Origin: Bacteroidota bacterium
GTDB lineage: Bacteria > Bacteroidota > Bacteroidia > Chitinophagales > JADIYW01
DNA length: 46,060 nucleotides
Reading direction: 5' to 3'
Assembly: GCA_028288625.1 (NCBI GenBank)
Contig: JAQBNI010000032.1
Location: 1 to 46,060 of the forward strand
Part shown: piece by piece, positions 2,798 through 44,911 of the stretch
Layout of the letters: each line of letters begins with the position of its first letter
How positions within the stretch are numbered: position 1 is the stretch's first letter
Position numbers and translations under genes: made by a program
The notes under the pieces: model-generated
The model's input: only the letters and a program-made list of their open reading frames with translations
The model's database searches: none
What the model was told of the DNA's origin: nothing

Positions 2798-2851
2798 GTT
2801 GTAAGTCATAAGTCGTAAGAATTTCATTCTCACTTTCATACTTCACTTTCA

Positions 2852-4562: not shown

Positions 4563-5042
4563 ATGAAAAAATGCAGCCTGTTTTTAATGACTTGTTTCTT
4601 CCTGTTGAGATCATATGCTCAGGAGATCACCATAGTAAAAATTGAAGATCTCAAAAAAGTATATGAAAAGCCGAATGATACGACGTACATCATCAACTTT
4701 TTTGCAACCTGGTGCGGACCATGCATGATGGAAATGCCTGTGCTCAATGAGTTTTATCGAAACAATAAAAACACAAGCAAGCAGCTCATTTTTGTTAGCC
4801 TCGACAACTCAAAATATCTCAAAAAACTTCCGTCATTCATTAAAAAATTAAAGATCGAAGCTCCCGTTTATTTATTAAATGAAAGCAGTGATTTCTCCTG
4901 GCTGCCGCTGATCGATAAGCGCTGGCAGGGCAGTATTCCCGCAACGATGGTCGTGAACAACAAGAAACATATCCAGGCTTTTTTCGAAACTCCTTTGGAG
5001 CAAGGTCAGCTGGAATTCTATTTAAAGAAGTTGGGTTTATAA
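4563..5042 (+). CDS. Exported thioredoxin-like (TlpA/ResA type) protein
   Basis: The frame is open further upstream to 4509, but the ATG at 4563 gives a proper signal peptide (MKKCSLFLMTCFFLLRSYAQ) and is the likely start, for a 159-residue protein. The mature part has a thioredoxin fold with the active site WCGPC at residues 50-54 after INFFAT, and a cis-Pro region near GSIPATMV. Single-domain periplasmic thioredoxins of this kind reduce or shuffle disulfides, for example in cytochrome c maturation or envelope repair. It has no obvious partner gene nearby, so its target is unknown. Confidence 0.85.
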   Translation: MKKCSLFLMTCFFLLRSYAQEITIVKIEDLKKVYEKPNDTTYIINFFATWCGPCMMEMPVLNEFYRNNKNTSKQLIFVSLDNSKYLKKLPSFIKKLKIEAPVYLLNESSDFSWLPLIDKRWQGSIPATMVVNNKKHIQAFFETPLEQGQLEFYLKKLGL

Positions 5043-5091: not shown

Positions 5092-5931
5092 ATGACCATT
5101 TTAGAGCGCGTTTTAGGTGGAAATATTTTTTATGATTTTTGGAAACAGGTCCAGCAATATATTTTTTCTGAAAAAAGATTTATTCAGCTGATCACGCTGC
5201 AGCCAATAGAAATTTACAATACATCAAGCGAGCTCGAAATAGATAATGCAAAGATCAGCTTGTTTATCAGGAGCACTGTGGAAAATATTATGCAGCGCAG
5301 GATCGATAAAACAATAAACCTGCTCACCTTTAATCTTGCTGGAAATCAAAAGAAAGATTCTTTCACTTATGATTTTGACGTATTGATCAGGGCACAAATG
5401 TTATACAAGGATGTTTCTGTTTTTTTTAATCATCATTTTTCAAACCAGTCTTACCCGATCGAAGAAAAAAAATATTATCTCACTATTGAGAATTTTCACT
5501 TTCATAATCACGGCACAAAGGCAGTTGTAGATGTGCCTTTCACATTGGATGCAAAATGGTGGATATTTAAAAGGAAGATGACGGGAACAGCAATATTTAA
5601 AGGCTCTGTCAACTTTCATCATCCTAAATATGTTGTAAAGACACGCAACCTGAATTACGAACTCGAAACAAAAAGTTTTATTTTACAAGTGATTGATAAA
5701 TTTTATCACAAAGAGCTGATTAAGTTTCTCGCAGAATTCTTACAATATAATTTTAAAGAAGAATTATTTCACGCAAAAACAGAAGCGCAATTGCAGATCA
5801 ACGAAGTGCAAAGTCAATCCAACTGGATCAACGGCAGCATAAACGATCTCGATCTGGAGCGCATCACCATTGAAAATGACGGCATCCATGGAGTCTTTCT
5901 CGCAAAAGGAAAATTGCACATGATAAGATAA
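5092..5931 (+). CDS. Hypothetical protein, DUF4403-like
   Basis: This is a 279-residue soluble protein with no signal peptide and no membrane segment. The sequence alternates short beta strands with polar turns. Its second half follows the layout I associate with the C-terminal half of DUF4403: a beta strand, a helix like FYHKELIKFLAEFLQYNF, then GSINDLDLERITIENDGIHGVFLAKGKL at the end. DUF4403 proteins are normally about 450-500 residues, so this would be a half-length relative or a different family of similar fold. It has its own TACATTTG element and is followed by a sugar epimerase gene after 29 nt, which may be a shared transcript. The function is unknown. Confidence 0.7.
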   Translation: MTILERVLGGNIFYDFWKQVQQYIFSEKRFIQLITLQPIEIYNTSSELEIDNAKISLFIRSTVENIMQRRIDKTINLLTFNLAGNQKKDSFTYDFDVLIRAQMLYKDVSVFFNHHFSNQSYPIEEKKYYLTIENFHFHNHGTKAVVDVPFTLDAKWWIFKRKMTGTAIFKGSVNFHHPKYVVKTRNLNYELETKSFILQVIDKFYHKELIKFLAEFLQYNFKEELFHAKTEAQLQINEVQSQSNWINGSINDLDLERITIENDGIHGVFLAKGKLHMIR

Positions 5932-7084: not shown

Positions 7085-7927
7085 TTGACTAAGAGCTTAA
7101 AAATAATTTGTCTGCTGTTAACCATGCATCTTGGTAATAAAAATTTGTTCTCACAAGAGAATGAGTTTGGCTATTGGGCGGGCACTGCGGTCTATCTTGG
7201 AGACCTCAATCCTACACTTTCATTCAAAGACGCGCGTTGGGCAACCGGCGTTTTTTACAGGTACAACCTGAACAACAGGATGGCGGTAAGAGCAGAAATA
7301 AATTATGGCTTTCTCGACGCAGCGGATAGCCGGATCAAGAACTATCCTTACCTGCAGGCGCGCAACCTCAGTTTTCAATCACATATTGTAGAGCTTGCAG
7401 CAACTTTCGAATTGAATTTCTTTAAGTATTCATTGGTGAAGTCGCGTGACACCCGCAACTGGACGCCTTATATTTTTTTAGGTGGAAGTCTGTTTTACTA
7501 TAATCCAACTATCTCTTTCGGAGGACAAACCATTAAACTGGAATCCGTGGGAACGGAAGGACAAAAGACGCCTAACCGTCCTGTAAAAAATAAAGGTTAC
7601 GATCAATATGCGTTTGCAATCCCTTACGGAGGCGGCGTGAAGATCGGCTTAACGCAAAATTGGGCGTTGAATGTTGAAGTGAGCAGCCGGCTGACCTTTT
7701 CAGATTATTTAGATGATGTCAGCAATAATTATCCCGATGAAATAGATGTGAATTATTTTCTAAACGGAACAAACCTCGGTCTGGATATCTACGACAGGTC
7801 TGTTACAAAGGTCGGGATTGCCGGCAAGCAGCGTGGCACCAGCAAGGATAAAGACAGGTTTATGTTCGTTGGAGTAGGCGTAACCTATACTATCCAAACC
7901 ACTAAATGTCCAAAAGTTTTTAATTGA
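7085..7927 (+). CDS. DUF6089 family outer membrane beta-barrel protein
   Basis: This 280-residue protein has an N-terminal signal-like segment (LKIICLLLTMHL) followed by ENEFGYWAGTAVYLGDLNPTLSF and many amphipathic beta strands, as in small outer membrane barrels. DUF6089 proteins are regularly found just before the isoprenyl transferase and bamA genes in Bacteroidota, and the gene order here agrees. The start is TTG at 7085: an in-frame stop at 7046 blocks anything much longer, and the next ATG (7124) would cut off the hydrophobic signal. The stop overlaps the uppS start by 4 nt (TTGA), which suggests translational coupling. Its molecular role is unknown. Confidence 0.82.
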   Translation: MTKSLKIICLLLTMHLGNKNLFSQENEFGYWAGTAVYLGDLNPTLSFKDARWATGVFYRYNLNNRMAVRAEINYGFLDAADSRIKNYPYLQARNLSFQSHIVELAATFELNFFKYSLVKSRDTRNWTPYIFLGGSLFYYNPTISFGGQTIKLESVGTEGQKTPNRPVKNKGYDQYAFAIPYGGGVKIGLTQNWALNVEVSSRLTFSDYLDDVSNNYPDEIDVNYFLNGTNLGLDIYDRSVTKVGIAGKQRGTSKDKDRFMFVGVGVTYTIQTTKCPKVFN

Positions 7928-8703
7928 GTACAGGTTCTTCCATATCATACAAAGAAAAAATTGACCTGTCGCGGTTGCCGCAGCATATCGCAATTATCAT
8001 GGATGGAAACGGGCGTTGGGCGAAAGCACAGGGCAAGCATCGCATTTTCGGACATAAGAACGGCGTGAAAGCTGTGCGGGAAGTTTCTGAAGGATGTGCA
8101 GAAATTGGCGTGAAGCATCTTACACTGTATGCTTTTTCTACGGAAAACTGGAATCGACCTAAAACAGAAGTGAATGCTTTGATGGAATTATTATTCCTGA
8201 CGATCGGAAGAGAAATTAAAACACTTCAGAAAAATAACATCCGCTTAAATGCAATCGGTCATATTGAAGATCTTCCTGCTGCAAATAAAAAAGCATTGCT
8301 GGAAGTAATGAAAGCGACAAGCAAAAATACAAGGATGACACTAACGCTTGCATTGAGTTATGGATCGAGAGAAGAATTGACAGAAGCTGCAATTAAGTTA
8401 GCAGTAGATTATAAAGCGGGAAAAATATCATTAAAAGAAATTAACGAGCAATCTATCAGCAATCACTTATATACGAAGGATATTCCCGATCCTGAATTGA
8501 TGATAAGGACGAGCGGCGAGCACAGGATCAGCAACTTTTTATTGTGGCAGGCTGCATACACGGAATTATATTTCACAGAAAAATTCTGGCCGGAATTTGA
8601 CAGGCAGGAACTCTATAAAGCAATTTTAGATTACCAGCAGCGCGAAAGGCGCTTCGGAAAAACCAGCGAACAAATCAACCAACAAATAACCAATACCAAC
8701 TAA
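7924..8703 (+). CDS. uppS: Isoprenyl transferase (undecaprenyl diphosphate synthase)
   Basis: The enzyme condenses isopentenyl diphosphate units in cis onto farnesyl diphosphate to make the C55 carrier lipid for peptidoglycan and surface polysaccharides. The 259 residues carry the hallmark IIMDGNGRWAKAQG with catalytic D27, then AFSTENWNRP, and the C-terminal block DPELMIRTSGEHRISNFLLWQ that contains the dimer-interface and diphosphate-binding arginines. The start is a TTG overlapping the previous stop as TTGA, and the stop overlaps the bamA start as TAATG. Such tight packing implies coupled expression within the DUF6089-uppS-bamA operon. Confidence 0.95.
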   Translation: MSTGSSISYKEKIDLSRLPQHIAIIMDGNGRWAKAQGKHRIFGHKNGVKAVREVSEGCAEIGVKHLTLYAFSTENWNRPKTEVNALMELLFLTIGREIKTLQKNNIRLNAIGHIEDLPAANKKALLEVMKATSKNTRMTLTLALSYGSREELTEAAIKLAVDYKAGKISLKEINEQSISNHLYTKDIPDPELMIRTSGEHRISNFLLWQAAYTELYFTEKFWPEFDRQELYKAILDYQQRERRFGKTSEQINQQITNTN

Positions 8704-16054: not shown

Positions 16055-18982
16055 ATGCACCATTTTTACCGATTACTCATTGTCACTTTTCTATTAAATC
16101 CTGTTTTAGCAAAAGCAAATTCGGGTTTTGTGAAATTGCTGTTCGGCATAGAGCCGAAAGAAGTTTTGGAAAGCAAGGATAAGAGTGCTGTTGTACTTAC
16201 CGAAGGAAGTTTGGGAAATAAAGGTTTTTTTTACCTGCAGCAAACAGATTCATTGGGAAATATACAATGGCTTGTAAATTTATTCCCCATACAGGATACA
16301 TCCGTACAGTTTGGTGTGGATATGCAAACAGATAACAACGGGAACATTTTTGTCATCACACATCACAAAAACGGAAATAACGGATTGCTTCAAAAAGTTT
16401 CCAAGATCAGGGATGGCGTAATTTTGTATACAAGAATATTACCGAACATTGATTCTTTGCAACCCGTTCCGTTTATTAGAACTTATGCGAAAACGGAAGA
16501 CAGCGGATTGATCCATATCCTCTATAATAAATTCACAAATACTTTTTATTTACAGAAGTTCGATGCGCAGGCAAGTATTGTATGGACGAAAATATTGGAT
16601 CATGTTAATTTTAATGCCTCCTTAGACAGCGTCGCTTTATTTGGTTTGCAATTTCAAACACGAATAAAGAAAGTTAACCCGAATAAATATGCGATCACCG
16701 GAATTGGATTTAATACTTCGGGAAATAAATATGAATTATTCCAGGCTATTTATGATAATACAAGCCAGACATTTCAATACAATCATTTTCAATTACCAGA
16801 AATCATTGTAAGTACTTCAAGCAAGCCGATCTTATTTGATGAAGCGATTACCAACCTGGATAAAATGCGAATTGCAATTTTAAATTATAATACTTCCGTA
16901 GCATTGAATTCTTATTTTATCAGCGATCTCAATATGGATAACGGCACAAAAAACATTGCTTATACTTTCCAGGACTCCAGCAACAATGCACATTTCCCCC
17001 AAAGATTATATATTGACAAAGCCGGCAATTTATTTTTTCTGAAACCGAATTCATTATATAAAAGAAATCCTGCAGGCGCCATGGTCTGGAATCGCATCAT
17101 GTTCCCGGACCGGGTGATTTCCGCGAATGTTATCGAACAGGATTTTGTATTCATGCAGAATTTTACAGAACTCAGCGATAGCTCCTTTTATATTATAGGC
17201 AGAGGTGGCAAGGGTTATCCCGGAAATTTTTGTTTTTGTTTCGGCGCATTAATTAAAGCGAATAAGAATGGGGTCATTTACGAACGCCTGATCAACGGTA
17301 ATGTATTTGTTGATGAAAATAAAAACTGCAGTTCTGATAATGAAGCGGGATTAAAACAAATACTTGTTGAAGCCACCACGGGAACGGCTTCATTTTATGC
17401 AACAACAGATTCCACCGGAAATTATTCTATTCCTGTAGACATCGGTGTGTACACGGTAAAGATCTATCTCAACAACAACACTTACTGGCAGGCATGTACC
17501 CCATCTGTACAAGTCAACACTTTAAATGATACCACGATTGCAGATTTTGCCGTACAAAAACAAATCGAATGCCCATATCTCGATGTAGATGTCGCAACGC
17601 CGTTTCTCCGCAGATGTTTTGAAAATACATACAATATTCATTATTGCAATTACGGAACTGCAACTGCCCAAAATGCTTACGTAAAAATTGTGTTCGATTC
17701 ATTATTACAAGTAACATCGTCTTCTATTCCATGGACAAGCGTTAACGGGAATACATATACTTTTCTATTGGGAAATATTAATGAACAGCAGTGCGGTGAT
17801 TTTAATATACATGCATATTTAAGCTGCGATTCCTCTGTGTTAGGACAGACACATTGTGTGCAGGCATTTATTTTTCCTGACTCATTGTGTGGAAACCAAG
17901 CCGGCTGGGATGGCGCAATTATACAAGTTACGGGAAGATGTGTTGGAGATTCTGTAATACTGCTGATAAAAAATATCGGAACGGGAAATATGACCGCCCC
18001 GAAAAAATATTATGTGCTTGAAGGAGATTTTTTAAAACTGGCGCCTAATGATTTTCAGCTGAATGCAAGCGACAGTAAAATAGTAACAGTTCCTGTAAAT
18101 GGAAATACGATCACATTGCTTGCGCAGCAAACAGACAATTACCCTTTCCCCGGAATGCCCGCCGTTTCTATTGAAGGGTGCAATGGCGCATTACAGCCCG
18201 GCTATGTAAACGATGTGTCGCAAAATAATTCTTCCCCATTCGTTGCTAATAACTGCATGCAAAACATCGGCTCATACGATCCGAATTTTAAAGCCGCGTT
18301 GCCAACAGGTTTAGATACGATGCATTTCGTAAACAATAAAACTCCGCTTGAATATATCATTCATTTTCAAAACACCGGAACGGATACTGCTTTCTCTGTT
18401 GCAGTAACAGATACGATATCAAAGATGCTCAATATCTCTACTTTAAAAATGGGCGCTTCGTCACATCCGTATTCCTACAATGTATCAGGTACAGGTGTGC
18501 TCAATGTAAATTTCAACAACATTCAGTTACCCGATTCTTCAACAGATCCGTCAGCATCGCAGGGATTTTTTAAATTTACTATCCAGCCAAAAAATACGCT
18601 GCCGGATTACAATAGAATTAATAATGATGCAAACATCTATTTCGATTTCAATAATGGCGTAAAAACAAATTCAGTTTTTCACACGGTGAAGGAAAATTTA
18701 TTCAACGTGATTTCTTCTGTTTCGAATACTTATAAAGATCATGTCAGTATACGTGTTTTCCCAAATCCTTTCAGTGATGTCGTTACGTTTAAAATGGCAG
18801 ATGAAAATCAAAACTATCTTTATGAATTTCACCTAACAGATTTGCAGGGAAAGCTCTTATGGTCACAATATTTCCGCTCTTCTCTTACCATTAATGGCAA
18901 GGATTTAAACAGTGATCTTTATCTCTACACCATAACCCACAATAATTCTATTGTAGCTGCCGGAAAGCTAATCAGACAATAA
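16055..18982 (+). CDS. Secreted T9SS cargo protein with type A sorting domain (paralogue 1)
   Basis: This is a 975-residue protein. A signal peptide (about 1-22) is followed by a 390-residue region of beta repeats with phrases like KVSKIRDG and DKAGNLFFLKPN, as in propeller-type extracellular domains. At about 413-500 lies an SdrD/B-type domain opening NGNVFVDENKNCSSDNEAG, which often binds calcium. Two further beta domains rich in Cys follow. At about 740-890 is a DUF7619-like conserved domain (SYDPNFKAALPTG, HFQNTGTDTAF, NIQLPDSS, IYFDFNNG). The end (about 898-975, VFPNPFSDVVTF to KLIRQ) is a type A T9SS sorting domain. The protein should cross the outer membrane and be anchored at the surface or released. 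It may be an adhesin, but no activity is visible. Confidence 0.85.
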   Translation: MHHFYRLLIVTFLLNPVLAKANSGFVKLLFGIEPKEVLESKDKSAVVLTEGSLGNKGFFYLQQTDSLGNIQWLVNLFPIQDTSVQFGVDMQTDNNGNIFVITHHKNGNNGLLQKVSKIRDGVILYTRILPNIDSLQPVPFIRTYAKTEDSGLIHILYNKFTNTFYLQKFDAQASIVWTKILDHVNFNASLDSVALFGLQFQTRIKKVNPNKYAITGIGFNTSGNKYELFQAIYDNTSQTFQYNHFQLPEIIVSTSSKPILFDEAITNLDKMRIAILNYNTSVALNSYFISDLNMDNGTKNIAYTFQDSSNNAHFPQRLYIDKAGNLFFLKPNSLYKRNPAGAMVWNRIMFPDRVISANVIEQDFVFMQNFTELSDSSFYIIGRGGKGYPGNFCFCFGALIKANKNGVIYERLINGNVFVDENKNCSSDNEAGLKQILVEATTGTASFYATTDSTGNYSIPVDIGVYTVKIYLNNNTYWQACTPSVQVNTLNDTTIADFAVQKQIECPYLDVDVATPFLRRCFENTYNIHYCNYGTATAQNAYVKIVFDSLLQVTSSSIPWTSVNGNTYTFLLGNINEQQCGDFNIHAYLSCDSSVLGQTHCVQAFIFPDSLCGNQAGWDGAIIQVTGRCVGDSVILLIKNIGTGNMTAPKKYYVLEGDFLKLAPNDFQLNASDSKIVTVPVNGNTITLLAQQTDNYPFPGMPAVSIEGCNGALQPGYVNDVSQNNSSPFVANNCMQNIGSYDPNFKAALPTGLDTMHFVNNKTPLEYIIHFQNTGTDTAFSVAVTDTISKMLNISTLKMGASSHPYSYNVSGTGVLNVNFNNIQLPDSSTDPSASQGFFKFTIQPKNTLPDYNRINNDANIYFDFNNGVKTNSVFHTVKENLFNVISSVSNTYKDHVSIRVFPNPFSDVVTFKMADENQNYLYEFHLTDLQGKLLWSQYFRSSLTINGKDLNSDLYLYTITHNNSIVAAGKLIRQ

Positions 18983-19121: not shown

Positions 19122-22103
19122 ATGAAATCTAATTTTACAACTCTCTTCCTGTTGCTTTTTTGTTTTTGCAGTCTGCCTTCTGTTAGTGCTGTAGAAATGC
19201 CGCGTTCTTATCAGCCACAATCCTTTAGCTACGTCAGCAGTATCATCCCGAATGCGGACAACGGTTTCACAATTATGGGTTATTTTAAAACGGCACCGAC
19301 AGATGCATTTGTCCCTAAAGTTGTGAAGTTTGATCAGAAAGGCGACCAGCAATGGGAAAAGAATTTCAGCAACCTTCCATTATTTGATTTTTCCGGAGTA
19401 GATGAAGGAGTGATGTATAAGACACCTGACAACGGTTACCTCTTACTCAATACTTATCCGTCACCCACTAACAACGGACGCTATGGTGTGATAAGAAAAT
19501 TTAATAAAAACTATGATTCCGTATATACCGTTTTTACGGGAATAGACAGTATCGGTCTTGATGAAACTTTTATAAACGGATGGAATTTATCCGTAAATAA
19601 AATTGTGCCAACAGCAGACGGCGGTTTCGCAATTGCAGGAAGTAATCTGCGCGACTGCTACAACAAGGGATATATCCTGGCAACATATTCTAATACCGGG
19701 CATTTAACATGGAAGGAGATCACGCCGCTGACGAATGGCTGTATTCAATTCCGATACGATGCTGCAATTTGCGATAGGGCATCGAACAATGGTTTTATAT
19801 TTGGTATTGCAAATCGTGTGCAGGTTGCACCAAATAAATTTAACGGAATTTTCAACCTTGTCAGGAAAAATTCCGCTGGGACAACAATGTGGTTAAAAGT
19901 GATCAACACCAACTATGATGTAAGCCAGGTTGCCAACAAAAATGTTTTGCTCGCACAAAAAGAATTGACAAACGGCAATTATAAATTTCTTACGCTGTAT
20001 GATGTTAACGGCGGCGATTATACCGGCGGAACATTTTTACAATACACACTTTCGCCAACAGACTCGCTTCTGCAAACAGATACGTTTAGTTTTTATCTGC
20101 CGCTTGCAGGAAGCGAAAATCTTAGAAAAATTGTGATCGATAAAAATGAGAATATTATTATCCTCGGACAAAAATCTATAACGAAATTGAATAAGACAGG
20201 TCATGTGATCTGGCAGCGCGAGCCTTTTGATGAATTACGCATTTATGATAATCCCGGTATAAAATATCATTTAACCTGCTATGCGGAAACTGCGGATGGT
20301 AATTATATTGTTGCAGGAAATTCTACACAAACTACTAATACCAACAATAGCAGTGTTGCATTATTTTATATTACTGCAGATGGGAAAATGAAAACAAAGA
20401 TCCTGTACGGAAATGTTTTTGTTGATATTGACAACAGCTGTACTTACAACTCCGGCGAAAAAGGATACCAGAACCTGATCGTCAAAGCACAAAAATATAA
20501 CCAGTCCTTTTATACTATAACGGATACACTTGGCAATTATAATTTGCCGTTGGACTCAGGGGTTTATAAAGTTTCGATACAATTACCCAACACCGTTTAC
20601 TGGCAGGGTTGTACGGATCATTATACCACTAACCTCACTTCATTTAATCCTTCTGCAAATATCAATATTCCTTTGCAGCCGAAAGTAAGTTGTCCGTTTC
20701 TAAATGTGGAAATATCAACTCCTTACCTGAGAAAATGTTTTCCAAATACATATTCCGTGTACTATTGTAACAGCGGTACCGACACTGCAAAAAATGCATA
20801 CATCTTAATTGATTTCGATGGCGACTTACAAGTCAACAGTTCTTCCTTGCCATGGACATCCGTTAGTGGAAATCAATACCGGTTCAATATCGGAAACATA
20901 CCTCCTCAAACGTGCGGCAACTTTAGAATCAACGCAACTGTAAAATGCAGCGCGATTGATGGCAAGACACATTGTGTGACTGCACACATTTTTCCTGATC
21001 AATTGTGTACGGCAAACAGCGTCTTGTATGACGGATCAAACATCGTGATCAAAGGAAGTTGTGCAGGAGATACGGCAGTGTTCGTGATCACTAATACCGG
21101 AATAGGAAATATGAGTGCGCCGAGAAGGTATATTGTAATTGAAGGAGATTTCCTTCGTGTTGCTCCGCAGAATTTTCAATTAGCAGTAAACGACAGCATT
21201 GTTTTAAGAATCCCCGCCAATGGAAAAACGATTTATGTGCAAGCCCAGCAGGATCCCAATTATCCATATCCAAGCTTGCCAAGCCTTGTGATAGAAAGCT
21301 GCAGCGGTAATATTGACAGCCTGAATCTTGTCAATCAATTTCCTCAAAATGATGGGGTAGCATTTTTATCGACTTCATGCGTACAAAACAGGAATTCTTA
21401 TGATCCGAATGAAAAAACAGCCCAGCCCACCGGATATTTGCAGGAGCATGTGGTGAGCAGGCAAACAGAAATTAAATACACACTACATTTCCAGAATACC
21501 GGTACCGATACCGCTTACAATGTTATTTTGCTGGATACCATTTCACCGGCTTTAGATTTGACAACATTAGTTATGGGTGATGCATCACACGATTATACTT
21601 ATGCTGTTTATGCAGGCAATGTTTTACAAATCACTTTCAATCATATCAACCTCCCGGATTCTTCCGCAAACAGTGACGGCTCAAATGGTTTCGTTACATT
21701 CCATTTGCTGCCTTCCAACGATGTTCCGAATGGTACGTTAGCTACAAACAGCGCGCAAATATATTTTGATTATAACAGTGCGATAAACACTAACCAGGTT
21801 TATCATACTATTGATTCTGTTCAATACAGGATCACGGCGATAAAGACGAATAAAGAATTTGTGGCGGGTATAAAAATTTATCCAAATCCTTTCTCCGATA
21901 AAACTACCATCGCATTAAAGCTGGAAAAACCACTCAATGATATTGTGATGAAAGTATTTGATATGACCGGTAAATTAATTGAAAACCGGAAAGTAGATGC
22001 GATCTTTGAATTCGAAGGAAATAATTTCATGAACGGCATGTACCTGTTGCAGTTTTATTCCGGGGATAAAGTGATCGCTACTGCCAAGCTGGTGAAGCAA
22101 TAA
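19122..22103 (+). CDS. Secreted T9SS cargo protein with type A sorting domain (paralogue 2)
   Basis: The 993-residue protein shares the architecture of its upstream neighbour: signal peptide (1-23), a roughly 400-residue beta-repeat region, an SdrD/B-type domain at about 429-520 (GNVFVDIDNSCTYNSGEKG), Cys-containing beta domains, a DUF7619-like domain at about 757-905 (SYDPNEKTAQPTG, LHFQNTGTDTAYNV, NHINLPDSS, IYFDYNSA) and a sorting domain from about 916 (IYPNPFSDKTTIAL to KLVKQ). The two align almost end to end after the first 400 residues, with the N-terminal region more divergent. The 139-nt gap between them is AT-rich, without a clear terminator, so they could be read together or from separate promoters. 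Confidence 0.85.
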   Translation: MKSNFTTLFLLLFCFCSLPSVSAVEMPRSYQPQSFSYVSSIIPNADNGFTIMGYFKTAPTDAFVPKVVKFDQKGDQQWEKNFSNLPLFDFSGVDEGVMYKTPDNGYLLLNTYPSPTNNGRYGVIRKFNKNYDSVYTVFTGIDSIGLDETFINGWNLSVNKIVPTADGGFAIAGSNLRDCYNKGYILATYSNTGHLTWKEITPLTNGCIQFRYDAAICDRASNNGFIFGIANRVQVAPNKFNGIFNLVRKNSAGTTMWLKVINTNYDVSQVANKNVLLAQKELTNGNYKFLTLYDVNGGDYTGGTFLQYTLSPTDSLLQTDTFSFYLPLAGSENLRKIVIDKNENIIILGQKSITKLNKTGHVIWQREPFDELRIYDNPGIKYHLTCYAETADGNYIVAGNSTQTTNTNNSSVALFYITADGKMKTKILYGNVFVDIDNSCTYNSGEKGYQNLIVKAQKYNQSFYTITDTLGNYNLPLDSGVYKVSIQLPNTVYWQGCTDHYTTNLTSFNPSANINIPLQPKVSCPFLNVEISTPYLRKCFPNTYSVYYCNSGTDTAKNAYILIDFDGDLQVNSSSLPWTSVSGNQYRFNIGNIPPQTCGNFRINATVKCSAIDGKTHCVTAHIFPDQLCTANSVLYDGSNIVIKGSCAGDTAVFVITNTGIGNMSAPRRYIVIEGDFLRVAPQNFQLAVNDSIVLRIPANGKTIYVQAQQDPNYPYPSLPSLVIESCSGNIDSLNLVNQFPQNDGVAFLSTSCVQNRNSYDPNEKTAQPTGYLQEHVVSRQTEIKYTLHFQNTGTDTAYNVILLDTISPALDLTTLVMGDASHDYTYAVYAGNVLQITFNHINLPDSSANSDGSNGFVTFHLLPSNDVPNGTLATNSAQIYFDYNSAINTNQVYHTIDSVQYRITAIKTNKEFVAGIKIYPNPFSDKTTIALKLEKPLNDIVMKVFDMTGKLIENRKVDAIFEFEGNNFMNGMYLLQFYSGDKVIATAKLVKQ

Positions 22104-23827: not shown

Positions 23828-24295
23828 TTATTTTTTCTTTTTTGCCGATAGCAGCTCCTTAAATTTAATTAATCTATTTTGTAATGTCTCTTCTTTCTTG
23901 GCGGAGGTGATCCATTGTGTGTATTCTTTCTGATGTGTGAAGGACATTCCATCAAAAATTGCTTTCAAATCTTTTTCTTTCTTAAAATAATTCTTCAGTA
24001 TTTCGGGAAGCTCTACCGTTCTATCATCGAGATCTTCTTCGATCTTAATATTTACAGTATCTCCGGGCTGCTTTCCTACCTGTTCGCGAATTGTCTTATT
24101 CATCATCAGGTTATATTCCCCGCCATACTTTGTAAGCAACCCGCGGTACAATACATCATCATACCAGATCTTTACTTTCAATCTTTTTTTGCCAAATGTT
24201 TTCTCCACATCAAATGTAACCGGGATGTAAAACACATCCATGTCGGTTGCTCTTTGTATGACTGCTTTAAATTGGGTGGATTTAGATTTTGACAT
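23828..24295 (-). CDS. YdeI/OmpD-associated (DUF1905-OmdA) family protein
   Basis: The 155-residue soluble protein has an N-terminal beta domain of the DUF1905 type (FKAVIQRATDMDVFYIPVTFDV, RGLLTKYGGEYNLMMNKTIR, VGKQPGDTVNIKIEEDLDDR) and a C-terminal helical OmdA-type region (FDGMSFTHQKEYTQWITSAKK, LQNRLIKFKELL). YdeI relatives have been linked to stress and antimicrobial peptide tolerance, but the mechanism is not known. It is the first gene of a two-gene unit with the membrane glycosyltransferase. The 220 nt upstream hold a self-complementary element described separately. Confidence 0.82.
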   Translation of the reverse strand: MSKSKSTQFKAVIQRATDMDVFYIPVTFDVEKTFGKKRLKVKIWYDDVLYRGLLTKYGGEYNLMMNKTIREQVGKQPGDTVNIKIEEDLDDRTVELPEILKNYFKKEKDLKAIFDGMSFTHQKEYTQWITSAKKEETLQNRLIKFKELLSAKKKK

Positions 24296-24363
24296 AGCGG
24301 ATTCTTTCAGTTTAAATTTAGTGAAAAGATTTTAAGAGTAGAATGTTGAATTAACAGTTACTT

Positions 24364-24498
24364 CTGTGGCGCGAGCATGCAGCCGGTAATTAGCGTTGGG
24401 TGCTTGTGCCATTTAATTAAAGACATTGTATCAATAATAAACTTTTGATAAGGCACAAGTACGCAACCGCACCAAGATATGTGGCTCATTCGCCAGAG
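24364..24498. repeat. Nested imperfect inverted repeat (135 nt)
   Basis: Inner arms 24395-24410 and 24452-24467 pair over 16 positions with one mismatch and one G-T wobble, around a 41-nt AT-rich loop. Outer arms 24364-24371 (CTGTGGCG) and 24491-24498 (CGCCAGAG) pair at 7 of 8 positions, and 24372-24376 with 24484-24488 at 4 of 5. The arms are clearly richer in G+C than the flanks. It fills most of the gap between the YdeI/OmdA-family gene and the broken nuclease-like gene. It could be a structured RNA, a relic of a mobile element or a repeated palindromic unit. It is not a simple terminator because no T-run follows the arms. Confidence 0.55.
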
Positions 24499-24515: not shown

Positions 24516-25568
24516 TTAAATGTTTTTTTTGTAAAAGTATTCCATTTCACCGTTCTTGTTTTCACCAGCATAATACTTATTGTTTTTTCCGTTAAAAATC
24601 ACTAATTGATCAATTAGCAATCGCATTTCACCACAATCAATATATACTAATTTATTCCTTACCAATGATTCGATAATTTTATTGATATCTAAATTATGTT
24701 TAACTGCATAATCCAGAAGTACTTCATTATGTTCAAGTTTAATGCTTTCCATTGTCAGTAGTAAGCTTAAAATTACAAATTCGTGTTCATCAATTTCCGC
24801 TGGTTTCCACTCAGCATTTTTCAGTGGTTTATTAAGTACTTCTTTTGATAATTCGATATAATTGTATTCCCAACCCCAAGTATCATTAATTTTTGTTTCC
24901 TTGCAAGATATAAATGGATGTACTGCTTCCACGAAATCATCTCCAAATATTTCTGAGCTAATCTCGAACATATAAGATAGCCTTGTCCATATCAATTCTA
25001 GCAAATGATACATTGGCTTTCCCGTGGAAGAACAAAACAAATGCCAATAAAAATATTCTTCTCTATATGGATTTCCATAAGGCATCCCGTTACATTTTAT
25101 AATACTATTATTGCCACAAATAAAAAGATTAGGAAAACTGACTGGTCCGTATCCTTGTACCTCACCTTTTTGAATTTTTTCTTCCAATTTATTAACAAAG
25201 CCATTTCTTAAGCTATATTCAGTTGAATAGCCATAATACCCAATCACAATTCGTAAAGGAAGAAACGCTTCCATGGTTAATAAGTGGTAAATTAATTGCG
25301 TTCGATCTGGTAATAAATGTAATTTTTCTCGTTTCGGGAGTTCAGAAGAGGTGAAAAGCTTATAAGCGTCTCTGTGTAACAAAGTAACATATGGCTCTGC
25401 ATCTCTAGGTTCAGAAACTTTAATTACGGATTTCAAATTTTTATGTGCATCATCTAAGTCGTTTGCAAATAAATTCTTTTTAACTTGAAATACTGCAATA
25501 ACATCTTTGATGTGATACTTGAATTGATTAGTAAATAATATTTGTTCTCCATCTCCTATTACTAGCAT
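24516..25568 (-). CDS. Main (C-terminal) fragment of the frameshifted DUF6602-like gene
   Basis: As an isolated frame this gives 350 residues from an ATG at 25568. The ATG is internal to the conserved region: the in-frame codons before it still read as the family (SDEIDC), so it is not a natural start. It contains the putative catalytic Q-x-K (AVFQVKKN, about residues 26-33), then a region with FICGNNSIIKC, and a tail with WGWEYNYIELSKE and a winged-helix-like end (EFVILSLLLTMESIKLEHNEV). The overall gene is AT-rich and reads unlike its housekeeping neighbours. Confidence 0.6.
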   Translation of the reverse strand: MLVIGDGEQILFTNQFKYHIKDVIAVFQVKKNLFANDLDDAHKNLKSVIKVSEPRDAEPYVTLLHRDAYKLFTSSELPKREKLHLLPDRTQLIYHLLTMEAFLPLRIVIGYYGYSTEYSLRNGFVNKLEEKIQKGEVQGYGPVSFPNLFICGNNSIIKCNGMPYGNPYREEYFYWHLFCSSTGKPMYHLLELIWTRLSYMFEISSEIFGDDFVEAVHPFISCKETKINDTWGWEYNYIELSKEVLNKPLKNAEWKPAEIDEHEFVILSLLLTMESIKLEHNEVLLDYAVKHNLDINKIIESLVRNKLVYIDCGEMRLLIDQLVIFNGKNNKYYAGENKNGEMEYFYKKNI

Positions 25569-25795
25569 GCAATCAATTTCATCACTAAGACTTTTGCTAT
25601 CATTATAAATAAAGCTATTCTGGACAATTTTAATTTCAAACCTTCGAATACACTTTTGTTTAATAGCTCTTTAGTGAGCCCTTCATAAATATTGCCAATG
25701 GTTGTCCTATGAGTTATATCACTTTCATCGTTGCCAATTTTTTTAAGTGCATAATCTCTAAATTGTTCTAATAAATCTGATACAGTAACAATCAT
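25562..25795 (-). CDS. N-terminal fragment of the frameshifted DUF6602-like gene
   Basis: The ATG at 25795 opens a 77-codon frame. The first 56 residues (MIVTVSDLLEQFRDY, then ITHRTTIGNIYEGL) look like a genuine protein start. The last 21 residues (LSRIALFIMIAKVLVMKLIAC) are out of frame and meaningless, running into a TAG. It overlaps the downstream fragment by 7 nt. Its 5' side (25796-25855) shows nothing I recognise. Confidence 0.5.
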   Translation of the reverse strand: MIVTVSDLLEQFRDYALKKIGNDESDITHRTTIGNIYEGLTKELLNKSVFEGLKLKLSRIALFIMIAKVLVMKLIAC

Positions 25796-25855: not shown

Positions 25856-26845
25856 TTAAACCTCAACTCCCACGTACTCATTCAAAATATCTTCGAGTAT
25901 CGAATGTAATTCATCGATATCATTTGTAGTCACCAGTTTTAATCGGTATGGTTTTATATTCGGTAAGCCTTTCAGGTAGTTGGAATAATGCGGGCGCATT
26001 TCCAGTATGCCGAGTGCATTGCCTTTCCATTCTATCGATTTTTGTAAATGCGTTCGGATGATGGTAATTTTTTCTTCTATGGATGGTTCTTCCAATATCT
26101 CTCCATTAAATAAAAATGCTTTCACCTGGTTAAAGATCCACGGCGAACCAATTGCCGCGCGTCCGATCATGATTCCATCAACACCGTATTTATTTTTATA
26201 TTCCAGTGCTTTTTGCGGAGAATCAATATCGCCGTTACCGAAAATCGGAATATGTATTCGTGGATTCTCTTTCACCTTCGCAATGAGTTCCCATTGAGCA
26301 TCGCCCTTATACATTTGCTTGCGCGTGCGACCGTGAATGCTCAATGCCTGTATGCCGATATCCTGCAAGCGCTCTGCGACTTCAACAATATTTTTAGTTT
26401 CTTCATCCCAACCGAGTCGCGTTTTTACAGTCACCGGCAAATTTGTTGCATTCACTACTTGTTGTGTTAACCGCACCATCTTTGGAATATCCTGCAAGAT
26501 TCCGGCGCCTGCCATCTTGCAAACCACTTTGTTTACGGGACAGCCATAATTAATATCGATGAGATCCGGATTTGCCTGTTCTACAATTCGCGTACTTTCC
26601 ACCATTGCATCTTCCTCACCGCCGAAGATCTGAATGCCGATCGGTCGCTCGTAATCATAGATATCTAATTTCTGAATACTTTTCGCAGCGTTACGGATCA
26701 AGCCTTCAGAAGAAATAAATTCCGTATACATAAGATCAGCGCCATACTGCTTGCACACCGCGCGAAAAGGCGGATCGCTCACATCTTCCATAGGCGCAAG
26801 TAACAAAGGGAATTCACCCAGATTTATATTGCCGATCTTTACCAT
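25856..26845 (-). CDS. dusB: tRNA-dihydrouridine synthase (DusB type)
   Basis: This FMN enzyme reduces specific uridines in tRNA to dihydrouridine using NADPH. With the start at 26845 it has 329 residues. It begins KIGNINLGEFPLLLAPMEDVSD (FMN barrel, first strand), carries the catalytic Cys102 in INYGCPVNKV, and shows IHGRTRKQMYKG, GNGDI and MIGRAAIGSPWIF of the phosphate-binding end. The frame runs back to 26890, but a TATCTTTG promoter at 26887-26880 overlaps that extension and the family starts near MVKIGNI, so the internal ATG is right. The gene is divergent from the CPBP protease gene with 47 nt between starts. Confidence 0.93.
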   Translation of the reverse strand: MVKIGNINLGEFPLLLAPMEDVSDPPFRAVCKQYGADLMYTEFISSEGLIRNAAKSIQKLDIYDYERPIGIQIFGGEEDAMVESTRIVEQANPDLIDINYGCPVNKVVCKMAGAGILQDIPKMVRLTQQVVNATNLPVTVKTRLGWDEETKNIVEVAERLQDIGIQALSIHGRTRKQMYKGDAQWELIAKVKENPRIHIPIFGNGDIDSPQKALEYKNKYGVDGIMIGRAAIGSPWIFNQVKAFLFNGEILEEPSIEEKITIIRTHLQKSIEWKGNALGILEMRPHYSNYLKGLPNIKPYRLKLVTTNDIDELHSILEDILNEYVGVEV

Positions 26846-26879
26846 ATAAGTTATAGGACAACAAATTCCTATCTTCGTA

Positions 26880-26887
26880 CAAAGATA
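26880..26887 (-). promoter_or_regulatory. Bacteroidota-type -7 element for dusB
   Basis: On the minus strand the bases read TATCTTTG, a full TAnnTTTG match, 34 nt before the chosen dusB ATG at 26845. On the plus strand a weaker TATCTTCG at 26870-26877 precedes the CPBP gene, so the two promoters interleave. The position argues against the longer dusB start at 26890. Confidence 0.5.
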
Positions 26888-26892
26888 CAATA

Positions 26893-40332: not shown

Positions 40333-41070
40333 ATGAAATTAAGCATCGTCATACCCGCGCATAATGAAGAAGAGAGTTTGCCTGAAACGCTGAACACTTT
40401 ATACACTACATTAAAAAAAGAGAATGTGGAGCATGAGATCGTAGTGATCAATGATAATTCCGGTGATAATACTTTGACCGTTTTAGATGCATTACAAAGA
40501 GATATCCCGAGCCTGGTTTTTTATTCGAACCCCGGTGCAAACGGATTTGGTCATGCAGTGCGATATGGTTTGGAAAGATTTAATGGCGATTATGTAGCCA
40601 TTATGATGGCTGATCTTTCTGACGATCCGAATGATCTCGTTAAATTTTACCGCAAAGCGATTGAAGGAAATTATGATTGTGTTTTCGGCACACGCTGGTC
40701 CGATGGCGGTAAAGTAATAGATTACCCTCCGTTGAAAAGAAGAATAAACAGGCTGTCTAATTTTATTGTAAGACTTCTTTTCCGTTTTAAATATAATGAT
40801 TGTACCAACGCATTTAAATTATATCGCCGCGAAACCATAGAAGGGCTAAAGCCATTTTTATCCCCGCATTTTAATCTCACTTTAGAGCTTCCGCTGAAAG
40901 CAATAGTACGTGGTTACAGTTATGCAATTGTGCCAAATTCCTGGACAAACAGGAAATACGGAGAATCAAAATTGAAGATCAAAGAAATGGGAAGCCGTTA
41001 TTTTTTTATATTGATGTACTGCTGGATCGAAAAAAGATTTTCGCGCGGTGATTTTAATAAGAAAAGCTAA
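40333..41070 (+). CDS. GT2 glycosyltransferase, polyprenyl-phosphate mannosyltransferase (DPM1)-like
   Basis: With the ATG at 40333 the protein has 245 residues (a GTG at 40306 lies inside the previous gene). It is a single GT-A domain without membrane helices. It begins LSIVIPAHNEEESLPETL, has VVINDNSGDNT at 38-48, GHAVRYGLERFNGDYVAIMM and the DxD-type ADLSDDP at 93-99, and ends in NSWTNRKYGESKLKIKEMG. This fits enzymes that load a sugar on polyprenyl phosphate. The sugar-lipid would feed membrane-embedded transferases; the paired membrane proteins in the opposite operon are candidates. Its stop overlaps the convergent gene by 4 nt. Confidence 0.86.
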   Translation: MKLSIVIPAHNEEESLPETLNTLYTTLKKENVEHEIVVINDNSGDNTLTVLDALQRDIPSLVFYSNPGANGFGHAVRYGLERFNGDYVAIMMADLSDDPNDLVKFYRKAIEGNYDCVFGTRWSDGGKVIDYPPLKRRINRLSNFIVRLLFRFKYNDCTNAFKLYRRETIEGLKPFLSPHFNLTLELPLKAIVRGYSYAIVPNSWTNRKYGESKLKIKEMGSRYFFILMYCWIEKRFSRGDFNKKS

Positions 41071-43001
41071 ATCTCTTTTAAAGTATACAATGTTATCTTT
41101 CCGGTGCTATCCGTTACAGAAGATAGAACAAGAGGCACCACACTTTTTGGCAATTTCGAGTTTGGAAAAGTGAAAGCAAATCTCACATTAAATTTCTTAA
41201 TAAAATCGAGCTGACTTTGTTCTATAGAAGTATATTGATGATTTATCTTCTGCAGTTGAACAAATTTATAAAAGGAGGAATTAGCGATATATTCATCCTC
41301 TGTCCGGCGTAAAACTTCTGTTTCACTTTTCGGAATTTCAAAATAAGTCAGGCATATAGGGTTGTACTCTTTATAATACATTTTTAAAAATCCGCACGGT
41401 CCATACATGTTAATGTTCTTTGTAAAAAAAGAAGTAAAGTCTTCCTTTGCTTTAAAATACACCATTGTACTTCCATCATATATTTTACGAACTTCCGAAG
41501 TAAATTTTTCATTTATCCCTGGTCCTCTTGTAAAGATTGCTGCCTGTTTAACGGAAAAGATAAATAATACAATAACTAAGATTTTTACAACAAGATTATC
41601 CTGCGAGAAGAGATATCCCATCATAAGAAAAATCACGATACAGGTTAAAGGCACATACACGATGGTCCATAATTGCACTGCGTCAAATAAATTTGAAAAA
41701 ATTGCATAAGCTACAATTGACGAAATGTGAATAATAATAAATAAGACAGCAAGAGCTGCTAATAAGAAATTGTTTTTTATATTCTTCCACATTGCAATAA
41801 AGAATAACAGCAAGTATGGCAACAAGCTCAATAGGCTTTTAATAACCTGCCCGGCAAAAGAATTGATTAATGTCTTGAAATAATAAAATCCGGAGAAAGA
41901 AACAGGATGAGTAGGAAAAGTACCCGGTAAAGTATTTTTATCGTTGATAATATGAATCCACCACGTGTATATTCCCAGGAAAATACAGACTGAAAGTATA
42001 ATGAGACTATAACGGATAAAATTATTTAAAGTGATCTTGTGAAAAGTGATGAGGTACAGCAAATAGATTCCTATAGAAATTAATATCGCCGGGGCTGCTA
42101 CTGTACATACTATTACAACTGCAAGAGCAATTAATATAATTGGAATGATCTTTTGAAACCGAATGAATATAAAGCTGTAGAAGACAAATATTGCCGGAAA
42201 TAAATATTTGGGCTGTGATATAAGTCCGGTATCCCACCAATCGCCACGTGTAAATAATGTATTGCGCGGAATATAAAAAGATAAGCCGCAGAGTACAAGG
42301 ATTGCAATAGCATTAAAATAAAACAGCTTGCTTTTAGGTTGAATAAAAACTTCAATCAATGCACATGCCCCTAAGAAATATACCACGAGAGAATGGGAGA
42401 ACAATTGAAAGTAAAAAGTGAAAAAAGCGTTTTGTCCCGTGATCCATGTATAAAATGCAGCGTACCAGTGGTCTCCAAAATGGTATAATGTTCGCGGTGG
42501 ATCAATTCCGCTTTTCCAATCGAAGAAGAAACCTTCAATACCTGTTTTGTTCAGGTGCTCTATTACAGTTCCGTAACTGTAAAAATCCCCGTTCACAATA
42601 TACGTTTGCTGAACGAAGGGATCTTTTATTTTCAGGTATAAATAAAGAAAAGAGATAAGTAAAATGATAAGCTCAAAGAATAAATAAGGGAGAAATGAAA
42701 ATGATATAGTTTGTTTTATCGCTTCATTCCAAGTATTTAAATAATTATTCTTTCTTAACCAGTACAATAAAAACAGACAGATGAGAATCAATCCGGTATT
42801 TATTGTGATGCCGCGAGTTTGATATAAGGAATAAAGGGTAATGATCGAATAAAACCCCACACATAACTTTGTAAACTCTTTTAAGAATGGATGCTTCGCA
42901 GGAATCCGTAAAAAAGCAATAAGCGTGTGACCGATGGCATAAGTCACCAAATAACTGACAATAGCATAAAATAAAGATTGTATATATATGGAGGACATCA
43001 T
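41067..43001 (-). CDS. Large multi-pass membrane protein, unknown (paralogue B)
   Basis: The 644-residue protein has about eleven hydrophobic segments in the first 470 residues and a soluble C-terminal part (about 490-644). After the third or fourth segment is a loop with VNGDFYSYGTVIEHL, then GDHWYAAFYTWITG and GDWWDTGLISQPKY. The C-terminus holds YKFVQLQKINHQYTSIEQSQ and NVRFAFTFPNSKLP. It aligns with the upstream neighbour in the same order of motifs. The shape (many helices, an early acidic loop, a C-terminal outer domain) is that of GT-C glycosyltransferases or ligases, but I recognise no named family. It overlaps its neighbour by 4 nt (ATGA) and is the last gene of the minus operon. Confidence 0.8.
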   Translation of the reverse strand: MMSSIYIQSLFYAIVSYLVTYAIGHTLIAFLRIPAKHPFLKEFTKLCVGFYSIITLYSLYQTRGITINTGLILICLFLLYWLRKNNYLNTWNEAIKQTISFSFLPYLFFELIILLISFLYLYLKIKDPFVQQTYIVNGDFYSYGTVIEHLNKTGIEGFFFDWKSGIDPPRTLYHFGDHWYAAFYTWITGQNAFFTFYFQLFSHSLVVYFLGACALIEVFIQPKSKLFYFNAIAILVLCGLSFYIPRNTLFTRGDWWDTGLISQPKYLFPAIFVFYSFIFIRFQKIIPIILIALAVVIVCTVAAPAILISIGIYLLYLITFHKITLNNFIRYSLIILSVCIFLGIYTWWIHIINDKNTLPGTFPTHPVSFSGFYYFKTLINSFAGQVIKSLLSLLPYLLLFFIAMWKNIKNNFLLAALAVLFIIIHISSIVAYAIFSNLFDAVQLWTIVYVPLTCIVIFLMMGYLFSQDNLVVKILVIVLFIFSVKQAAIFTRGPGINEKFTSEVRKIYDGSTMVYFKAKEDFTSFFTKNINMYGPCGFLKMYYKEYNPICLTYFEIPKSETEVLRRTEDEYIANSSFYKFVQLQKINHQYTSIEQSQLDFIKKFNVRFAFTFPNSKLPKSVVPLVLSSVTDSTGKITLYTLKEI

Positions 43002-44911
43002 TTTAAAATCAAAAATTCATATGAACTGTCATTATTGAAAATTCTTTCTTTCACGAGCGTATCAATACTTACGGGTAATTTGTTTTCATGCAATTTTATA
43101 ATATACCTGATATTAGCTTGTTTGATCAAATCAATCCTGCTTCGTTCAATTGATACAAATCTGCTTTCCTTTTTCTGCCGTTGTACAAATTTGTAAAGAG
43201 TTGAATTTTCTAAAAACATTAACTGGTATTGTCGTATAAGATTATCCTGGCTCAATAACACTTCAAATGAATTTAAATAAATCGGTTGATAATTATCGAA
43301 ATATAAACGAATATTATCAATAGGAACATATGCATTGTAATTCTGTCCGTATACCAGGGTAAGAGGGGAGGCAGATTTAGAAAAAATCCCAAAATTAATT
43401 TTCGGATCATTTAAGGCTTTGAGTTTTATTTTCAACAAAAATGCGGAATCTGCCTTTGTGTATTTATTGTTATTAATTATATTCTGGAAGACGCATATCA
43501 GAAAATAAAGAGGAAACAGAACTAAAAAGATACGCCTGTTATAGTATAATAAAAGCAAGAATGCAATGGTGGTCAGCAATGAAATTATAGATTGATAAAA
43601 TATCACCCATATCTGAATCCCATCCACTAAAAAATAGAAGAGTGAAAAAGAGAACATTGTAGAAAACGAAAACAAAACCAAAAATAGAAGCGTTAATTTT
43701 TCCGTGCCGGAAAGAACGAATTGTTTTCGAAACAAAATTATAAGCAAAATCAGTGGAATAGCAGAGATAAAAAATTTAATCGTAAGACCAGCAAAAATAT
43801 TAAAGACCAACCTGTAATATTGTAATGACGATAACATTTTCAGTATTGGGTAAGTCACCGTGTAATGGGGATATTTTGAATTATGATGAAGTAAAAGCCT
43901 GCTGTATATTATTAAGAATATCCCTGATAAAAAAATAGGAATAATAAATTTATGCGCCTGCCGGATGTCTACTTTTTTTATATAAATTAATACTCCTGTA
44001 AACACAGTGCTGGCTATCAATATAGAAGGGATGCCTAAAGGAGTTATGAAAATGCCTGATAAAAAAACAATAATAAACTTATTATACTTGTTCTTTAATA
44101 GATATACGGTAGCAAGCAACAATGAATGTCCATAAAAACAATACTTAGGCATAACAAATAAAGAGGCAATCCCCCAATCCGTGTCAAAAAATGGAACTGA
44201 CTTTGGGAGGTAAAAATAAACCGGCGATATCACCAAAGCGGATATTGCCAGAATATATTCCCAATTACTAAACTTTTTATCCTTTTTAAAAAGAGATAGG
44301 ACAGCAAGAACACCGAGTGAAAACACAGACAATCCGTATGTCCACACTAACAGATAAAAACATCTTAATGCATTTATTTTAAACAGCCACGTTAAAAATG
44401 CGCCATACCATAATTCCGTATAATGGTATAAACTAATTATTGGTTCTTTATAAAAAAAGTCTGTACTTATGGTTTCTGCATTCAGGAGATTCATCCGATA
44501 TATGTGGGTGGCATACAGCGAAAAATCCCCTTCCAGATAATAAAACTCTTTTGTAAAAGGATTGTATAGCCTGAAATATAAATAAGAGTATATCAAGATT
44601 AAAGTAACAGACTGGAAAATAAGGACAGGGTAATTAAAGGGAAGAGATCTTATTTTTATCTTTACTTTATTCAGGATTATTGCCGCTAAAAAAAGAATCA
44701 CAAAGCCAAAGTTCATCGTAAAGAACATTGTCTTCACAATAGAATATACAACTACGATGATCCATAATCCGAATATATTCTTTTTGAATTCAGCAGAAAT
44801 ATCAGATTCACCCTCTTCAGAAAAAAGACTATAAAATATATGACCAACCATATAAGTGACAAAGAATGCACCAAAAACAAGTCCCAAATATTTAAAATAG
44901 GAGATCTCCAT
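42998..44911 (-). CDS. Large multi-pass membrane protein, unknown (paralogue A)
   Basis: The 637-residue protein has about eleven membrane segments and a soluble C-terminal part (about 490-637). Corresponding blocks to the next gene are LEGDFSLYATHIYRM, YHYTELWYGAFLTWLFKIN, DTDWGIASLFVMPKYCF, and at the end YKFVQRQKKESRFVSIERSR with IRYIIKLHENKLPVSID. It begins right at the stop of the DegT gene (TAAATG) and overlaps the next by 4 nt, so the three genes are translated together. It could be a GT-C type transferase that uses lipid-linked sugars, or another glycan-processing membrane protein. The sequence is very AT-rich, more so than in the housekeeping genes. Confidence 0.8.
   Translation of the reverse strand: MEISYFKYLGLVFGAFFVTYMVGHIFYSLFSEEGESDISAEFKKNIFGLWIIVVVYSIVKTMFFTMNFGFVILFLAAIILNKVKIKIRSLPFNYPVLIFQSVTLILIYSYLYFRLYNPFTKEFYYLEGDFSLYATHIYRMNLLNAETISTDFFYKEPIISLYHYTELWYGAFLTWLFKINALRCFYLLVWTYGLSVFSLGVLAVLSLFKKDKKFSNWEYILAISALVISPVYFYLPKSVPFFDTDWGIASLFVMPKYCFYGHSLLLATVYLLKNKYNKFIIVFLSGIFITPLGIPSILIASTVFTGVLIYIKKVDIRQAHKFIIPIFLSGIFLIIYSRLLLHHNSKYPHYTVTYPILKMLSSLQYYRLVFNIFAGLTIKFFISAIPLILLIILFRKQFVLSGTEKLTLLFLVLFSFSTMFSFSLFYFLVDGIQIWVIFYQSIISLLTTIAFLLLLYYNRRIFLVLFPLYFLICVFQNIINNNKYTKADSAFLLKIKLKALNDPKINFGIFSKSASPLTLVYGQNYNAYVPIDNIRLYFDNYQPIYLNSFEVLLSQDNLIRQYQLMFLENSTLYKFVQRQKKESRFVSIERSRIDLIKQANIRYIIKLHENKLPVSIDTLVKERIFNNDSSYEFLILK

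What the first reader, a model, noticed from the sequence alone, without database searches (positions are those of the whole stretch)
24516..25795. Nuclease-fold DUF6602-like gene broken by a single-base frameshift
Two overlapping minus-strand frames rebuild one protein of about 426 residues if one A is restored in the AAAA run at 25628-25631. The hidden stretch IVQNSFIYNDSKSLSDEIDC in the second frame continues directly into MLVIGDGEQ. The rebuilt N-terminus carries Glu (YEGLTKE), EID and QVKK in the order of a PD-(D/E)XK nuclease core. It stands alone in an AT-rich patch between housekeeping genes, beside a palindromic element, as accessory or defence genes often do. The AAA codon can slip by one base, but the run of four A is short for programmed frameshifting, so mutation or sequence error is more likely.
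Basis: partly seen in the sequence, partly recalled or inferred. Interest (0 to 1): 0.6.

Follow-up and report, generated by a model that had tools for sequence, protein, structure and literature searches.

The report
Broken stand-alone NucC-like nuclease gene
A recently acquired gene for a DNA-cutting enzyme related to the phage-defence nuclease NucC sits between two ordinary genes of a Bacteroidetes bacterium, but a one-base change of reading frame has split it, so as sequenced it cannot make the active enzyme.

Summary
Two minus-strand frames, offset by one base and meeting at the A-run 25628-25631, are parts of one gene of about 426 codons: relatives up to 58% identical run through the junction in one open frame. 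The N-terminal domain is Pfam DUF6602, and what that domain does is clearer than its name: the V. metoecus NucC core itself scores 113 bits against DUF6602, a profile of 74 rows of this family finds NucC structures at 3e-10, and the model of the closest intact relative (pLDDT 92) aligns residues 1-277 with nearly all of NucC at Z 17. Unlike NucC it has about 155 further residues, probably a winged helix, no fixed partner gene, and no cyclic-nucleotide synthase of the types sought in this genome. It is absent from all seven genus-mates, so it was acquired. The break parts Glu38 from Asp75 and Gln104-x-Lys106, and the only common downstream start lies after Asp75: a pseudogene or a sequence error, not programmed frameshifting. 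A defence role is inferred; some relatives lie beside Gabija, pAgo-SIR2 or SoFic genes and, in six Bacteroidetes, beside integron-type attC sites.

The parts
25628..25795 (-). first part of the gene, codons 1-56, with catalytic-type Glu38 (25682-25684)
   Evidence: DUF6602 positions 3-36; alignment with intact relatives
25628..25631 (-). A-run at which the two reading frames (offset by one base) meet
   Evidence: sequence; relatives continue in one frame here
24519..25628 (-). second part of the gene, 370 codons in the shifted frame (residues 57-426 of the family numbering); stop codon 24516-24518
25562..25795 (-). ORF as actually readable from the first ATG: 77 aa, last 21 out of the family frame
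24516..25568 (-). ORF readable from the first common internal start (ATG 25568): lacks Glu38 and Asp75 (25572-25574), keeps Gln104 (25485-25487) and Lys106 (25479-25481)
24963..25795 (-). NucC-like region (residues 1-278)
   Evidence: relative's model aligns 1-277 with NucC, Z 17.1
24588..24809 (-). probable winged-helix domain (residues about 330-403)
   Evidence: own sequence modelled, pLDDT 90; all leading matches are winged helices but Z only 6-7.4

Best explanation
It is an acquired, now inactive copy of a single-gene anti-invader nuclease: a NucC-type PD-(D/E)XK DNA endonuclease (residues 1-278) fused to a C-terminal module with a probable winged helix (about 330-403). In intact relatives I think the NucC-like part cuts double-stranded DNA and is held off until the C-terminal module, instead of a cyclic trinucleotide, meets a trigger from an invading phage or plasmid (inferred). 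In this genome the frame changes at codon 56-57, so neither readable product holds a complete active site (shown from the sequence); unless the base call is wrong, the locus is a pseudogene.
For: Shown: one gene in two frames; DUF6602, which also contains NucC itself; homology to NucC by sequence profile, E 3e-10; fold of the nearest intact relative matches NucC over 204 of 240 residues, Z 17.1, next family Z 9.8, Foldseek 1.2e-9; catalytic-type residues kept in all relatives; added C-terminal domain, own sequence modelled with pLDDT 90; no SMODS synthase and no Cas10 palm domain in this genome; absent from all 7 genus-mates, whose dus and glycosyltransferase genes lie close together without it; no constant neighbour in about 80 loci. 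Inferred: the defence role, from NucC (PMC8682760, PMC10419184), from relatives beside Gabija (GajA 3e-261, GajB 1e-286), PifA, pAgo-SIR2 and SoFic, on plasmids and in a tra-gene element, and from repeated independent loss: six other copies carry different lesions.
Against: No experiment on any member was found; no paper held mentions DUF6602. Defence genes are neighbours in only a minority of loci, and genes further away show defence hits too. The winged helix is supported by middling Z only. Gln at position 104 replaces the usual acidic residue in this branch, so cutting is not certain even in intact relatives. The trigger is a guess.
Confidence: 0.6

Rival explanations
1. Sequence or assembly error: the gene is intact in the living cell and the frame change lies only in the assembly.
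For: Only one lesion in 1,280 bases, no in-frame stop, codon-like divergence in both pieces, as expected of a gene under selection until very recently.
Against: No other split gene is apparent among the ORFs that tile this 46-kb contig; a run of only four bases is an unlikely place for an indel error; other family members are truly broken, one identically in three public records of Bacillus glycinifermentans.
Confidence: 0.33
2. Programmed -1 ribosomal frameshifting makes the full protein in controlled amounts.
For: AAA can re-pair one base back in the A-run.
Against: No X-XXY-YYZ heptamer at the site (sequence); none of the intact relatives has the shift; the broken ones break elsewhere.
Confidence: 0.03
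3. It belongs to a type of effector switched on by cyclic tri-adenylate made elsewhere in the cell, like NucC in CBASS or type III CRISPR.
For: NucC homology over the whole NucC length.
Against: No SMODS synthase or Cas10 palm domain in this genome; no synthase stands out among the neighbours of relatives; two pocket residues of E. coli NucC (Arg53 and Tyr81, recalled from the literature, not checked) align with a variable position and a conserved Gly; extra C-terminal module.
Confidence: 0.1
4. The C-terminal fragment alone (from ATG 25568) still serves, for example as a DNA-binding regulator.
For: It keeps the whole C-terminal module; in B. glycinifermentans the break lies near the border of the NucC-like part, leaving both parts as ORFs.
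Against: It would begin inside a strand of the nuclease core; no sign of its own conservation apart from the nuclease.
Confidence: 0.07

Closest known systems
NucC (cA3-activated PD-(D/E)XK DNase of CBASS and type III CRISPR; PDB 6p7p, 6q1h, 6uxf, 7zgw)
   Same: Same Pfam domain DUF6602; same fold over nearly all of NucC; Asp and (E/Q)xK residues at equivalent positions
   Different: About 155 extra C-terminal residues; no synthase or CRISPR partner of the tested kinds in this genome; Gln in place of the acidic residue before xK in this branch; the PADLOC NucC model scores weakly at best (E 0.017 for L045, no hit at E 1 for the window piece)
Pfam DUF6602 proteins annotated on plasmids (for example WP_061301081, next to Gabija)
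   Same: Same full-length architecture, about 31% identity over 99% of the C piece
   Different: Those are intact; this copy is split
PADLOC PD_DExK (PDLC01495, CRISPR-associated)
   Same: Core domain matches, E 9e-7 (window), 1.3e-10 (L045)
   Different: No CRISPR context seen near this gene
Type II restriction enzymes NgoMIV, BbvCI, Bse634I
   Same: Share the PD-(D/E)XK core, Z about 8-10
   Different: Much weaker match than NucC; no modification enzyme beside this gene

Membership tests
Pfam DUF6602 (PF20247) | Score above the curated cut-off (27 bits) | tested here: met
   C piece alone 38.7 bits; both pieces read together 60.6 bits
PD-(D/E)XK nucleases | Glu ... Asp ... (D/E/Q)-x-Lys in order, in the right elements | tested here: met
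   Glu38, Asp75, Gln104, Lys106; conserved in 73/73 (Gln or Glu at 104); helix 30-48, strands 74-80 and 99-109 in the relative's model
PD-(D/E)XK nucleases | Fold | tested here: met
   Nearest relative's model: NucC Z 17, NgoMIV Z 9.8; tested on a relative, not on the split gene
NucC proper | Fold over the whole NucC length | tested here: met
   204 residues, 2.9 A, chain 5-225 of 240, in the relative L045
NucC proper | Compact protein of about 240 residues without a further domain | tested here: not met
   about 426-435 residues with C-terminal module
NucC proper | cA3 pocket residues (Arg53, Tyr81 of E. coli NucC, recalled) | tested here: inconclusive
   Align with a variable position and a conserved Gly; pocket identity not verified from a held paper
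NucC proper | Trimer, hexamer on activation | not testable with these tools
   needs purified protein
CBASS or type III CRISPR effector | CD-NTase or Cas10 in the genome | tested here: not met
   SMODS PF18144: 0 matches; Cas10 palm PF22335: 0 matches; other synthase families not tried
Programmed -1 frameshift gene | Slippery heptamer, shift kept in relatives | tested here: not met
Integron gene cassette | attC site next to the gene | tested here: not met
   None in the window (0 hits, 1 in each shuffle); present next to six relatives
Experimentally shown anti-phage systems | Protection against phage | not testable with these tools
   needs bench work

The most novel reading that the evidence does not exclude
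Full-length proteins of this type are a one-gene immune system in which a NucC-type DNase carries its own sensor domain and needs no cyclic nucleotide, and which spreads by plasmids, conjugative elements and integron-like cassettes across phyla; the copy in the window is a recently silenced one.
Probability: 0.4. Interest if true: 0.6.

Novelty: new variant of a known kind. Interest (0 to 1): 0.38.

Why it matters
A domain still listed as of unknown function contains NucC, a well studied phage-defence DNase, and many proteins annotated only as 'DUF6602' may be stand-alone nucleases of that kind with a built-in sensor. If so, they are testable at once with one gene in a laboratory strain. The window copy itself is of small interest: an acquired accessory gene that is broken.

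Tried and rejected
First genome-contig scan with the C piece alone found nothing; a family alignment was needed. Phage records: no match; viral predicted structures: nothing significant. Conserved partner gene: none, the clusters shared by loci reflect related host genomes or elements. Near and far neighbours scanned against PADLOC: no clear gradient, so guilt by association is weak. attC next to the window gene: rejected; the dispersed 44-bp repeat at about 24305-24352 lies just before the DUF1905-like start and has copies before other genes, so I read it as belonging to that gene. A covariance model of attC sites came out without base pairs and was not used. Rfam: nothing credible. Literature: no held paper names DUF6602 or a stand-alone NucC with winged helix.

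Full report
Observation. The shifted frame is open through the junction and joins IVQNSFIYNDSKSLSDEIDC to MLVIGDGEQ. The A-run is at 25628-25631. The pieces match complementary parts of Pfam DUF6602 (PF20247): positions 3-36 for the N piece (E 0.014), 35-102 for the C piece (9.6e-10), and 3-102 when the protein is read through (1.5e-16). Intact relatives decide the matter: two of 394 other genomes of the class have one, and a family-level scan gave 80 loci, the nearest 54-58% identical over the C piece (L045 Flavobacterium stagni, L049, L047, L051) and open through the junction. The gene is real and is split here.

Surroundings. It lies between dus (25856-26890) and a gene I take for a DUF1905-type protein (23828-24295; named from memory, not searched). 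In all seven genus-mates dus and the glycosyltransferase gene are close neighbours and nothing of this family is present there or elsewhere. The gene is AT-richer than its surroundings (30.5% against 37.6% GC; GC3 0.21-0.25 against 0.44 in dus). It was most likely gained in this lineage.

What it encodes. The V. metoecus NucC core, taken from the printed alignment, scores 113 bits (7e-33) against DUF6602, so NucC belongs to that Pfam family. A profile of 74 rows (A5) finds NucC structures and nothing else: 6uxf 3e-10, 7zgv 8e-6, 6p7o 1.3e-4. The model of L045 (pLDDT 92.4, pTM 0.91) matches NucC first by Foldseek (1.2e-9) and by VIA-align 2 with Z 17.1 over 204 residues, model 1-277 against chain 5-225; the next family, NgoMIV, has Z 9.8. 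Glu38, Asp75, Lys106 and Lys107 are kept in 73 of 73 aligned sequences; position 104 is Glu in 46 and Gln in 27, the window being of the Gln kind. Thus the whole NucC fold is present in family members, followed by about 155 residues. The window's own C-terminal 148 residues, modelled with 55 relatives, give pLDDT 89.9; nearly every leading match is a winged helix (MecI, MarR, AbfR), but Z is only 6-7.4 and no Foldseek E-value is below 0.046, so I call it probable.

What the break does. The change comes after codon 56. The product from the first ATG has Glu38 only; the first ATG, GTG or TTG downstream in the family frame is the ATG at 25568, two codons after Asp75 (25572-25574). Neither product holds a complete active site. 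There is no slippery heptamer, no relative has the shift, and broken relatives break elsewhere: B. glycinifermentans near residue 280 (same sequence in L074, L113 and L023), L036 by a stop at a Trp position, L107 by a stop, L097, L118 and L026 by frame changes. Loss is therefore recurrent and independent in this family. No other gene of the 46-kb contig looks split, which speaks a little for a true mutation, but without reads an error cannot be excluded.

How it may work. Shown: NucC homology, residues, extra domain, stand-alone nature (no constant partner), mobility (plasmids; tra-gene element; absent from genus-mates). NucC is activated by cA3 made by a CD-NTase or Cas10 and degrades dsDNA (PMC8682760; PMC10419184; PMC7854544). 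This genome has neither a SMODS domain nor a Cas10 palm domain. I infer that the C-terminal module takes the place of the cyclic-nucleotide signal. Relatives stand next to GajA and GajB, PifA, pAgo-SIR2, SoFic and a ThsB-like TIR gene, but only in a minority, and distant genes of the same loci also include defence genes.

Mobility. In six Bacteroidetes relatives an attC-like site stands directly beside the gene, so the family appears among integron-like cassettes. The window copy has no such site, although its genome holds a recombinase followed by four attC-like sites on another contig. How the window copy arrived is open.

Classification. Member of DUF6602 and of the PD-(D/E)XK nucleases; NucC-like; not NucC proper by size and by the lack of the tested partners. 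Family: a new variant of a known kind. This copy: a broken member.

Noticed in passing
L032:854-987 and 2318-2512; L035:1111-1235 and 3086-3210; L039:2262-2385; L045:7830-7954; L048:9354-9478; L088:7144-7266 and 7833-7957: Integron-type attC-like sites, mostly 122-125 bases from AAC to GTT with paired arms, lie directly beside the DUF6602 gene in six Bacteroidetes relatives (random controls: 2 of 104 stretches passed the score and neither had this geometry). The gene seems to travel as an integron-like cassette.
   Followed up: partly
L144 (own genome, contig C55:10500-16384), recombinase 2247-3320, sites 4085-4163, 4913-4990, 5186-5307, 5577-5698: A tyrosine recombinase (best NCBIfam match the XerA/integron integrase type, 223.6 bits; below the integron integrase cut-off) is followed by small ORFs separated by four attC-like sites: a possible integron-like array in this Bacteroidetes genome.
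   Followed up: partly
window 24305-24352 and own-genome contigs C86, C56, C23, C55: A 44-bp sequence upstream of the gene at 23828-24295 has 4-6 dispersed copies, several before other ORFs and two inside attC-like sites; role unknown.
   Followed up: partly
window 24393-24470: Inverted repeat with 18-19-base arms and a 41-base loop downstream of the split gene; the region folds better than shuffles (z -3.0) and has no other copy in the genome.
   Followed up: partly
L023:262-1547, L074:2308-3593, L113:8001-9286: The Bacillus glycinifermentans copy of the gene is split near the border between the NucC-like part and the C-terminal module, identical in three public records.
   Followed up: partly
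window 16055-18982 and 19122-22103: Two neighbouring large proteins with signal-peptide-like starts are 40% identical over 666 residues: a tandem duplication, probably of surface proteins.
   Followed up: no
window 41067-43001 and 42998-44911: Two neighbouring, apparently membrane-bound proteins of about 640 residues are 27% identical, stop and start codons overlapping: an old tandem duplication.
   Followed up: no
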